The position numbers and the translations under genes were made by a program. Below are positions 8,934 to 11,931 of a stretch of DNA of 64,000 nt, in pieces. The notes beneath the pieces are model-generated. The model was not told the DNA's origin, made no database searches, and worked only from the letters and a program-made list of their open reading frames with translations. Location: NCBI GenBank assembly GCA_028820845.1, contig JAPPII010000013.1:62001-126000 (forward strand). Direction: 5' to 3'. Source of the stretch: Candidatus Poribacteria bacterium. GTDB lineage: Bacteria > Poribacteria > WGA-4E > WGA-3G. Numbering within the stretch: position 1 is the stretch's first letter; each line of letters starts with the position of its first letter.

Positions 8934-9042
8934 GTTTCTATTTTCCTCTCTATTTTGGTTTAGCTGCTTCCATTTTAGAGGGTTTTTAGATAGATGTCAA
9001 GTGTAAAATTTGAGTAACAGCAAACCAACAACTTATGCTACT

Positions 9043-9092
9043 TGCGTAAGTCCTGTGTACTATAGCCTGTTAGGCTGTGGTCCGAGAGGGTG
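9043..9092. repeat. Dispersed repeat: half-element TIR plus 31-base repeat
   Basis: tgcgtaagtcct at 9043-9054 is the terminal inverted repeat of the elements found at 12081, 13480 and (variant) 15695, here without a partner. Next to it, 9062-9092 is identical over 31 bases to 62543-62573 and contains the near-palindrome agcctgttaggct. Nothing else is recognised in this intergenic stretch. Confidence 0.65.
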
Positions 9093-9143
9093 CTCCGACT
9101 TATCAGGGGTGAAGGATTTGCAGGATTTGTTAGCAGTCAGCAA

Positions 9144-9497
9144 TCAGCGGTCATCGGTTTCACCTGTAATTGCCTTTTGCTCCGGCGGGGGCTGGTGTGC
9201 GATGGCGAGTTTCCCTAAGACTTCAACGAGTGCGTTGGCATCTGCAATATGTGTGGGCTGCTGAAGTCCTTCCAATGCGACCGTCAATCTCTCCAGAATT
9301 CCGGCGAGTTGGGGTGTAGCCATAGTTCCTTGGACAGGTTGCGCACTGGGAGATAATTTCTCCAAACTCTCTAATGTCTTAGTTTGGGATTGGGTCAACG
9401 CCTGAAAAGCTGGGGCGGCGTATTCGTTGTTATCCAATGCATGGATTCCCAATGATGCATGTTTCAATCTCGCAATCGAGATACTTTTCCTTTTCAA
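9144..9497 (-). CDS. Hypothetical protein, possibly decayed
   Basis: An open minus-strand frame of 117 codons from a TTG at 9497, or 60 codons from an internal ATG at 9323. The upstream start lies inside a CRISPR-like repeat, so the first residues are probably not native. The central part is helical with Leu/Gln-rich segments (LAGILERLTVALEGLQQ). No family is recognised and no signal or membrane segment is seen. It may be a gene remnant; the shorter start is as likely as the longer one. Confidence 0.25.
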   Translation of the reverse strand: MKRKSISIARLKHASLGIHALDNNEYAAPAFQALTQSQTKTLESLEKLSPSAQPVQGTMATPQLAGILERLTVALEGLQQPTHIADANALVEVLGKLAIAHQPPPEQKAITGETDDR

Positions 9498-9571
9498 TTC
9501 ATTCCCGACCCATAATCCTTAACCAGAAGCAGATGTTTCAATCTCGCAATCAAGATACTTTTCCTTTTCAA
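9461..9571 (-). CRISPR. Orphan two-repeat CRISPR-like locus
   Basis: Two 37-base repeats (9461-9497 and 9535-9571) differ at a single base and flank a 37-base unique spacer (9498-9534). On the minus strand each repeat ends GATTGAAAC, like the 3' handle of type I/III repeats, and contains a palindrome ATCTCG-ATTG-CGAGAT. The single difference changes one C to T in the 5' arm and keeps pairing as G-U. No cas gene is in the window. A chance duplication is possible, but size, structure and handle all fit a CRISPR. Confidence 0.6.
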
Positions 9572-9777
9572 GGCGTACCTTTCTTTGGAAGCCTTACCCT
9601 ACATACCTTGATAAACGACTTTTCTATGAGCGACGTTTATAATTGTTAAAGGCGATAAAGAGATAAACAGAGGGCTAAAAGCAGAAGACATAAGGGTTTC
9701 TACAGCACTATGAGCGACCCGATAATTCAATTCCCAACGGTTACGATGCCCCTCCTTGCGATGTGTGCAAATTGCCA

Positions 9778-10047
9778 TTATTTCAACCACGCAAAAATGA
9801 TCGCTGCGACAGCAACAACGAGGGCAACCCAAGACTTGATGTCCGCCCAGAATTCGCCCCGTCCTTCGAGTTTCCCGCGCACCCATGCCATACTTTGCTC
9901 CAGCGATGAGAGCCTGTTTTCCATAGATGACATCCGCTCATCTATCCTGTTTTCCATAGATGACATCCGCTCATCCATAGACGACATCCTGTTACCGATT
10001 TCAGAGAGTTGAGCTAACAGGAGTTCTTCAAATTTTTCTTGATTCAT
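9778..10047 (-). CDS. Small coiled-coil protein with C-terminal membrane segment
   Basis: The ATG at 10047 is chosen because GGAG lies 8 bases upstream, giving 89 residues (MNQEKFEELLLAQLS). Residues about 15-50 are a coiled coil built from near-identical heptad-like units (RMSSMDE, RMSSMEN) encoded by tandem DNA repeats around 9896-9985. A hydrophobic C-terminal helix (SWVALVVAVAAIIFAWL) should anchor it in the membrane, with the coiled coil on one face. Function is unknown. The protein at 23615 has the same length and layout, suggesting a family of membrane-tethered coiled coils. Confidence 0.7.
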   Translation of the reverse strand: MNQEKFEELLLAQLSEIGNRMSSMDERMSSMENRIDERMSSMENRLSSLEQSMAWVRGKLEGRGEFWADIKSWVALVVAVAAIIFAWLK

Positions 10048-10231: not shown

Positions 10232-10396
10232 CAGGGCCATTCAATTGTCGGATTTTTTGCGTATTTTTGCGAGGGCATCGCGAGTTGAAAGTTTGCCGCT
10301 ACAAGAATGTGTCGGTAATCGGAGTTCCCTCCTACAGAAGAATTGAATGGCTCTGGCAGAAAAACAGAAGTCGCGTGTTTTTTCAAGCGACTTCTG
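10232..10396. repeat. Inverted repeat and stable hairpin in a gene-free stretch
   Basis: In the gap 10048-10525, cagggccattcaatt (10232-10246) is the inverse of aattgaatggctctg (10341-10355) with one mismatch, outlining a 124-base MITE-like segment. Just after it, cagaagtcgc (10365-10374) and gcgacttctg (10387-10396) form a perfect 10-bp stem. No coding frame here is convincing. Confidence 0.5.
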
Positions 10397-10525
10397 CTAT
10401 ACTTCACCTTAAAACTAACTATTTTTTGAGGCGAATCATCACCCAAACGTATCAAAAAAGACTTGTCGTGCTTAATCAAGAAGCGAGTCAAAATCACAGA
10501 CTACAAATATGGGTAACAGATCGTC

Positions 10526-10624
10526 ATGCCTAAATTAGCAAAAAGTCCGCTTCGGTACCCTGGTGGTAAATCAAGGGCATTGAAACAGATTCTGCCGCTG
10601 ATTCCGATGAACAAAAATTATTGA
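10526..10624 (+). pseudogene. Stub of a Dam-type (D12 class) adenine DNA methylase
   Basis: A 32-codon frame starting MPKLAKSPLRYPGGKSRALK shows the SPLRYPGGKS N-terminal motif I region (SAM binding) of D12-class N6-adenine methyltransferases, such as Dam or DpnM. It stops after ...PLIPMNKNY, where normal members continue for about 250 residues with a DPPY motif. No continuation is seen in any frame before the convergent MauG-like gene at 10651. It is therefore a 5' remnant of a deleted methylase gene. Confidence 0.7.
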
Positions 10625-10650: not shown

Positions 10651-11931
10651 CTATCTGGGTTTTGTAAGCAAATGTGCGGGCGGTAATTCGCCTGTCAATG
10701 TTTTTAAGAACGCAATCAAATCACTTTGTTCCTGTTCGCTGAGATGAAGGGGTTCTATCGGCACACTACCTATACCCGGAAATCCGTTGGTGAGACCGCC
10801 AGCATTCTTAAATGCGATCACCGATTCAAGTGTTGGAAATTCACCGGTATGGAAATAAGGTGCCGTTATCGCAAAGTTTCGCAACGTCGGTGTTCTGAAC
10901 GCGCCTTGATCCTCAGGTTTCGTTTCCAGAAGACGCAGCATCTCTTCAGACGATTCTCTGGAATCGCTATAGATACCCGCACTGTTGAATATATTCGCTA
11001 AGAGTTTCGGGATCCCTTGAAATCGTCCTTTGTCTTCTGTCAAACCGTCTTGTGGAATGCCGATGTTATGAAATGCATTGTCCGTAAATCTCGGTGTATT
11101 ATGACAGTCAACACAACCGCCTTTGCCGATGAATACTTTCAAGCCGCGCTTCGCCTCAGCCGAGATTGCTGTCTCATCACCTGCGATATACCGATCAAAT
11201 GGTGCATCGGGGGTAATTAAAAGGCGTTGGTATGCCTCAACTGCCTTACCGATGTTTGAGAAGATGATGTTCACAGCGATCTGATCTGCTTCTGACATGC
11301 CATCGAACGCGGGGTCTCCGGGTTTACCGTCAGTTGGAAAGCGGGTGATATCTTCGAGTTCGGGGAGCCGACCAAACACCGCTTCATATTCGGTTTTATA
11401 GTGTTCATTGATGACATGCGCGTACTGAGTGCGTGTACCAGCCATTTCACTTTCACCTTCAAGGGCAAAGAGTGCTTGTGTCCACATCGTCTCCGACCTA
11501 CCATCCCAGAGTTGCCAAGTATTATAGGCGGCATTAAGCACGGTCGGTGTATTTCTTGTACCGCGGCCGGTAGCGAATGAAGTTGATTCAATATCTGCGA
11601 ATGCGTAAAATGGCGAATGGCATGTTGAACAAGCAATCGTGCTGTGTTTTGAAAATCGGAAGTCAAAGAAAAACTTCTGACCTAAGCGTGCAGCGTTAGG
11701 ATCATCGGCGACGTAATTGGTAGGATTCGGTGGTGGTTTATCGGGTAGAGGAGATAAGCTCCTTATGACTTCCCATTCTTCTTGGCTAAAGAGGTCGGGA
11801 GTTTGTGTAGCGGATTCAATTTGAGAGAGTACTGTTCCTGGGTTTGCCTCGTCGCATCCTATAAAGAGTAGAGGCAGGCTGCATAAACAAAAGGTGAGGA
11901 CAACTAACACTCTGTTAGGATCAAACAGCAT
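10651..11931 (-). CDS. Diheme cytochrome c peroxidase (MauG/CcpA family)
   Basis: A 426-residue exported diheme protein. The N-terminus has a hydrophobic stretch ending LLFIGC26, a plausible lipoprotein site. Heme sites are C101-STCH and C273-VDCH; the first is followed by the SPFYAFAD segment and the second by NTPRFTDN, as in MauG-type diheme peroxidases. These reduce peroxide or oxidise partner proteins in the periplasm. AGGAG precedes the start. Genes of this type often work with c-type cytochromes, and the contig has many. Whether it is a peroxidase or an oxidase cannot be told. Confidence 0.9.
   Translation of the reverse strand: MLFDPNRVLVVLTFCLCSLPLLFIGCDEANPGTVLSQIESATQTPDLFSQEEWEVIRSLSPLPDKPPPNPTNYVADDPNAARLGQKFFFDFRFSKHSTIACSTCHSPFYAFADIESTSFATGRGTRNTPTVLNAAYNTWQLWDGRSETMWTQALFALEGESEMAGTRTQYAHVINEHYKTEYEAVFGRLPELEDITRFPTDGKPGDPAFDGMSEADQIAVNIIFSNIGKAVEAYQRLLITPDAPFDRYIAGDETAISAEAKRGLKVFIGKGGCVDCHNTPRFTDNAFHNIGIPQDGLTEDKGRFQGIPKLLANIFNSAGIYSDSRESSEEMLRLLETKPEDQGAFRTPTLRNFAITAPYFHTGEFPTLESVIAFKNAGGLTNGFPGIGSVPIEPLHLSEQEQSDLIAFLKTLTGELPPAHLLTKPR

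What the first reader, a model, noticed from the sequence alone, without database searches (positions are those of the whole stretch)
9461..9571. Two-repeat CRISPR with a structure-preserving repeat change
37-base repeats, 37-base spacer, ATTGAAAC handle and a 6-bp stem whose only variant keeps pairing as G-U. That suggests selection on RNA structure. No cas genes nearby, so it may use a distant system or be a fossil.
Basis: partly seen in the sequence, partly recalled or inferred. Interest (0 to 1): 0.5.

Follow-up and report, generated by a model that had tools for sequence, protein, structure and literature searches.

The report
Orphan one-spacer type I CRISPR array
This is a tiny stand-alone CRISPR memory array (one spacer between two repeats, with its leader still recognisable) in a Poribacteria-type bacterium whose genome holds a matching complete CRISPR-Cas system elsewhere; it is real but of a known, ordinary kind.

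Summary
In detail: two 37-nt repeats (36/37 identical) flank a 37-nt spacer. The crRNA strand is minus. So it is a true orphan array.

No cas gene was found in the window. On another contig the genome has a complete type I-D operon with a 24-repeat array of the same repeat/leader family. In congeners that family accompanies a Cas6/Cas4-Cas1 module with either I-D or I-B-like effectors, so the mini-array's own subtype is not certain. It is not a recent copy of the host's array. It sits in a variable gap beside a gene fragment and a truncated methylase, and is unchanged in the one other assembly of the species. No spacer target was found.

The 'structure-preserving' change is one mutation that weakens the stem; it is not evidence of selection. 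Best reading: a relict array, frozen for spacer uptake, that at most supplies one crRNA to the distant system. Against this, the leader is well conserved. Known kind, low interest.

The parts
9461..9497 (-). CRISPR repeat, leader-distal copy (crRNA strand is minus)
9498..9534 (-). the only spacer, 37 nt; no target found
9535..9571 (-). CRISPR repeat, leader-proximal copy, carries the C-G to U-G stem change
9578..9718 (-). CRISPR leader of the family found beside Cas4-Cas1 fusions in congeners and on host contig C32
9154..9440 (-). 3' fragment, 92% identical to part of a 306-aa gene on host contig C26; ends 20 bp before the array
9778..10047 (-). small open frame (89 aa) of coiled-coil look with a hydrophobic end; neighbour, not part of the array. 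Match to its stretch is present in many congeners
   Evidence: coiled-coil and hydrophobic end are my reading of the sequence
10526..10624 (+). truncated DNA adenine methylase, 32 codons; 277-278 aa in congeners

Best explanation
An orphan type I CRISPR array (leader, two repeats, one spacer, no cas genes) of the repeat/leader family that serves the Cas6/Cas4-Cas1 modules of this genus. It is probably a relict of an older array lineage, left in a variable intergenic gap. It appears frozen for spacer uptake. If it is transcribed from its leader on the minus strand, the host's Cas6 on contig C32 could cut both repeats 8 nt before the spacer and the type I-D effector could carry the single crRNA. 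Shown: repeats, leader, family, complete distant I-D operon, unchanged state in the other assembly, fragments on either side. Inferred: relict status, loss of uptake, processing in trans. Not shown: transcription, target, subtype of the mini-array itself.
For: Leave-one-out HMM finds the leader at E 8.6e-12; alignment scores 71-77 to three related leaders against shuffle maxima 30-34, 0 of 500 each. Host C32 locus has Cas3', Cas10d/Csc3, Csc2, Csc1, Cas6, Cas4-Cas1, Cas2, each over an NCBIfam cut-off, and 24 related repeats. Mini-array identical in L022, 0 differences in 9386-9819, while the same assembly's fragments of the C32 and C92 arrays show other spacers. Gene fragment on one side, truncated methylase on the other. 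No target.
Against: The leader is not visibly decayed: it departs at 3 of 39 columns that are at least 90% conserved in 20 other leaders, against 0-8 of 28-33 for the others tested one by one. Handle and stem are kept in both repeats. The two assemblies are nearly identical (16 mismatches and one gap in 3.87 kb), so an unchanged array is weak evidence, and the spacer differences in the other arrays sit at a contig edge or could be assembly collapse.
Confidence: 0.65

Rival explanations
1. A working satellite array: transcribed, processed and still updated in trans by the C32 type I-D machinery, only short.
For: Conserved leader, intact handle and stem, complete Cas set in the genome. The last 22 nt of the repeat on the crRNA strand differ from C32's main repeat at two positions (inspection).
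Against: Whole repeat has 9 ungapped mismatches of 37 to C32's main repeat; leader only 58% identical to C32's; one spacer against some twenty in the host's array; same spacer in both assemblies.
Confidence: 0.22
2. A mini-array brought in by a virus or other mobile element, as in archaeal viruses that carry leader plus one or two spacers.
For: Same anatomy as virus-borne mini-arrays with leaders (PMC6858448, passages). The gap is variable between congeners, and the leader is not a copy of the host's.
Against: No viral contig in IMG/VR holds the repeat pattern tried. Of five window proteins and two C26 proteins scanned against PHROGs, one has a strong match (E 4.8e-34, a family of unknown function), 5.7 kb away, and Pfam reads that protein as WD40 repeats; the others have weak or no matches. 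Neighbours are metabolic genes.
Confidence: 0.08
3. A regulatory guide of the CreR kind (name and mechanism recalled) that pairs partly with a nearby promoter.
For: An 11-nt match to the seed end of the spacer lies 1.7 kb away at 11284.
Against: It lies inside a di-haem peroxidase gene (10651-11931) and is preceded by CTG, not the type I-D motif GTN (motif from PMC10212523, passages). GTN plus the 12-nt seed has no exact match in the genome and 5 with one mismatch, against 2 for the reversed control.
Confidence: 0.02
4. A new array made by off-target spacer integration at a repeat-like site, or a chance repeat.
For: Only two repeats, no cas genes.
Against: The leader homology over about 140 bp and the family repeat are not expected from either.
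Confidence: 0.02

Closest known systems
CRISPR arrays of the same genus beside Cas4-Cas1 fusions, e.g. G006:C82 (with Csc3/Csc1/Cas3d), host C32 (type I-D), G003:C81 and G004:C57 (no Csc3 in those genomes; G004 has a Cas7b-type protein)
   Same: 37-nt repeat with GTTTCAATCTCG start and the same stem; homologous leader
   Different: Those have 24 to 131 repeats matched in the stretches read and cas genes; the window repeat has one inserted base and one substitution against the G003/G006 form (inspection)
Isolated or orphan CRISPR arrays (PMC5294841, PMC12814883; passages read)
   Same: No cas genes near; arrays far from cas tend to be short; no spacer turnover noted for one orphan array in Streptococcus pyogenes
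   Different: Here the leader is recognisable, and the related system is intact in the genome
Virus-borne mini-CRISPR arrays with leader (PMC6858448; passages read)
   Same: One spacer, leader, no cas genes
   Different: Surroundings here are not viral as far as scanned, and no viral target was found

Membership tests
CRISPR array | Near-identical repeats with a unique spacer of regular size | tested here: met
   spacer 37 nt, against 35-46 nt in the host C32 array apart from one 268-nt gap
CRISPR array | Leader homologous to that of known arrays | tested here: met
   no similarity to the order-level leader of G057 (114 of 500 shuffles as good)
CRISPR array | Spacer matches a foreign element | tested here: not met
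   not required of a true array, many spacers have no known target
Type I-D array | Repeat and leader of the host's I-D locus family | tested here: inconclusive
   Same family as host C32 (I-D), but congeners G003 and G004 with the family have no Csc3 in their genomes, and G004 has a Cas7b-type protein
Type I-D array | I-D cas genes beside it | tested here: not met
   they are on contig C32
Type I-D array | Processing by Cas6d and loading of the crRNA | not testable with these tools
   needs RNA data or enzyme assay
Virus-borne mini-array | Lies in a virus or provirus | tested here: inconclusive
   only seven proteins scanned against PHROGs
CreR-like guide | Partial spacer match with a PAM at a nearby promoter | tested here: not met

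The most novel reading that the evidence does not exclude
The one-spacer array is kept by selection as a dedicated guide locus: an older repeat/leader lineage, separate from the host's updating array, that feeds one fixed crRNA to the distant type I-D effector for a standing job, such as a recurrent symbiont virus or a host locus paired by less than full complementarity.
Probability: 0.06. Interest if true: 0.5.

Novelty: new member of a known kind. Interest (0 to 1): 0.18.

Why it matters
Mostly annotation: it adds a leader-bearing, cas-less array in a Poribacteria-type genome. It gives a natural test of whether a distant type I-D system still uses an array whose repeat has drifted by an inserted base. 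It also shows that a leader search, rather than two repeats alone, separates real mini-arrays from look-alikes.

Tried and rejected
Selection on repeat structure from the G-U variant: rejected as evidence (one event).

Recent copy of the host's C32 array: not supported. Leader identity is 58% to C32 and at best 64% (G006) to others; C32's own best is 70%. The leader tree groups the mini-array with two family-level leaders, but it is a short alignment and I give it no weight.

Calling the whole leader family 'type I-D': held at first, dropped on checking. G003 and G004 have no Csc3 match, their Cas3 scores under the I-D model's cut-off, and a G004 protein matches a Cas7b model.

Spacer target: three pieces in IMG/VR gave no match for the two 20-mers and two matches for the 18-mer, which extend to 22 and 25 of 37 bases. 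Phage records: 7 with partial matches, none over 80% of the spacer, best E 0.1. Plasmids: none. 97 genomes: only itself. 360 stretches between repeats of six arrays (five of this family and C92): longest match 10 nt.

Rfam: nothing in 9000-10000 at E up to 10.

Solitary leaders elsewhere: two weak hits, G025:C77 and G052:C112, show no repeat arrays.

Loss of a -10 box in the leader: dropped, because that hexamer also varies in the other leaders.

One search found 27 stretches in the genome collection; only L022 has two matches 74 bases apart. The 26 single matches were not examined: the script did not find the files, and I did not repeat it.

Papers: PMC10212523, PMC12814883, PMC6858448 and PMC5294841 seen as passages. 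PMC10651486 (solitary repeats as RNA anti-CRISPRs) seen only in a search listing. 'Poribacteria' with 'type I-D' gave 0 papers and 'type I-D' with 'orphan array' 1 paper, not opened; one open-access library only.

Full report
Observation. In the host genome (125 contigs) the repeat, with up to 3 mismatches, occurs only at these two places, and in no other of 97 genomes of the relatives panel. A contig titled Candidatus Poribacteria SB0670_bin_34 (L022) carries the same array. One search lists a same-species genome with the leader at the same contig position (G098:C34), most likely the same assembly.

Strand and structure. On the minus strand the repeat is TTGAAAAGGAAAAGTATCTCGATTGCGAGATTGAAAC. 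I compared 26 distinct repeats that begin GTTTCAATCTC, taken from the loci held. That search pattern fixes the 3' arm of stem pairs 1-5, so only the 5' arm and pair 6 are free. The fifth base of the 5' arm is C in 25 and U only in the leader-proximal window repeat. Pair 6 is G-C in 21 and A-U in 5, a genuine two-sided change. Predicted energies of the two window repeats are -6.1 and -4.0 kcal/mol. One change that leaves a wobble pair is no evidence of selection.

Leader. Beyond the second repeat the window resembles the leaders of related arrays. Local alignment scores against the leaders of C32, G004 and G006 are 73, 71 and 77, with shuffle maxima 30, 34 and 33 (0 of 500 each). Against G003 the score is 35 (2 of 500 as good), and against G057 21 (114 of 500). 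An HMM from four leaders without the window finds 9718-9579, minus strand, 40.4 bits, E 8.6e-12, and nothing else in the window. Model R1 includes the window leader, so its own score there is inflated; it was used to find leaders elsewhere. It gives 24 places in 21 of 58 genomes, with strict filters that lose weak matches. Set against, 20 of the 24 lie within 1 kb of a Cas1 match on the same contig. The other four are the mini-array in G000 and in G098 (G098 was not) and two weak hits without arrays. The leader is not decayed: it departs at 3 of 39 conserved columns, the others at 0-8 of 28-33.

The distant system. Contig C32 carries Cas3' (688 aa), Cas10d/Csc3, Csc2, Csc1, Cas6, a Cas4-Cas1 fusion and Cas2, each over an NCBIfam cut-off. 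The fusion's best model is Cas4g/Cas1g of type I-G, while the I-D Cas1 model stays below its cut-off (374.4 against 385). The array has 24 matched repeats, the outermost set apart by 268 nt. Its main repeat has 9 ungapped mismatches of 37 to the window's, its two leader-distal repeats 5 and 7. The G003/G006 repeat is nearer: one inserted base and one substitution (by inspection).

Subtype. The repeat/leader family is not tied to one effector. G006:C82 has Cas3d, Csc1 and a Csc3 match 6-9 kb from its Cas1. G003 and G004 have no Csc3 match in genomes 89% and 81% complete. G004:C57 has a Cas7b-type protein, and its Cas6 and Cas4-Cas1 pass their cut-offs. So the mini-array belongs to this family, but whether it once served I-D or I-B-like effectors is open. 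The system of this family found in the host today is I-D.

Surroundings. 9154-9440 is 92% identical to the 3' part of a 306-aa gene on contig C26, and the match ends 20 bp before the array. That protein has no Pfam or PHROGs match at E 0.01. I fetched 11 congener loci. In 6 of 11 both the sulfatase and the methylase are found; the gaps between the matched stretches are 152, 292, 356, 1158, 1158 and 1808 bp, against 1430 bp here. In the other five only one of the two genes is found in the stretch fetched. The three long gaps hold other open frames, and no leader is found in these loci. The methylase (Pfam MethyltransfD12 in L195) is 277-278 aa in 7 of 7 loci that show it and 32 aa in the window.

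Turnover. Window and L022 differ at 16 positions and one gap; none lies in 9386-9819. In that assembly (G097) the C32-type array shares its oldest units but has a different unit next to them, at a contig edge. The C92-type array shows one spacer absent from the stretch of the host's C92 held. This hints at turnover there and none here, but contig edges and collapse make it weak.

Target. No convincing protospacer was found, and no exact seed-plus-GTN site in the genome. From PMC10212523 (passages): I-D spacers most often 35 nt, an 8-nt handle left by Cas6d, PAM GTN.

Conclusion. A genuine orphan array with its leader, most likely a relict that at most gives one crRNA to the distant I-D system. 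Orphan arrays and mini-arrays are known (passages), so this is a new member of a known kind.

Noticed in passing
window 9243-9385 against L022 and L122: 12 of the 16 differences between the window and the near-identical contig L022 lie in this 143-bp stretch of the gene fragment, and L022 there reads like the copy on contig C26 over the stretch I compared: looks like gene conversion between paralogues (or an assembly chimera).
   Followed up: partly
L120 (G000:C32), L124 (G004:C57), L123 (G003:C81), L125 (G006:C82): Related leaders, repeats, Cas6 and Cas4-Cas1 fusions stand beside different effector sets (Csc-type I-D in C32 and G006, Cas7b-type in G004): the effector appears to have been swapped around one adaptation and processing module.
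   Followed up: partly
L120 6722-8359: A Cas4-Cas1 fusion whose best NCBIfam model is Cas4g/Cas1g (type I-G) sits in a type I-D operon.
   Followed up: no
L121 6974-9837 (G000:C92): A reverse transcriptase of group II intron type lies directly before Cas1 beside the second array; the rest of this system was not typed.
   Followed up: no
L120 8877-8901 (G000:C32 leader): A degenerate repeat-like stretch lies inside the C32 leader.
   Followed up: no
window 9497-9498 and 9571-9572: Both window repeats carry one inserted base against the G003/G006 form, yet the copied unit is 37 nt; the base that ends the family repeat is kept only on the leader side. This could be a 37-bp ruler acting on a 38-bp repeat, or one mutation.
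   Followed up: no
window 10232-10442: Two short stretches (10232-10355, 10357-10442) recur in many copies in congener genomes, probably small repeated elements.
   Followed up: no
L187 about 1500-1620 (G025:C77): A weak leader-model match (E 8.2e-6) with no repeat array and no Cas1 on that contig; perhaps a bare fossil leader.
   Followed up: partly
window 9913-9975: A perfect 33-bp tandem repeat inside the small coiled-coil-like frame.
   Followed up: no
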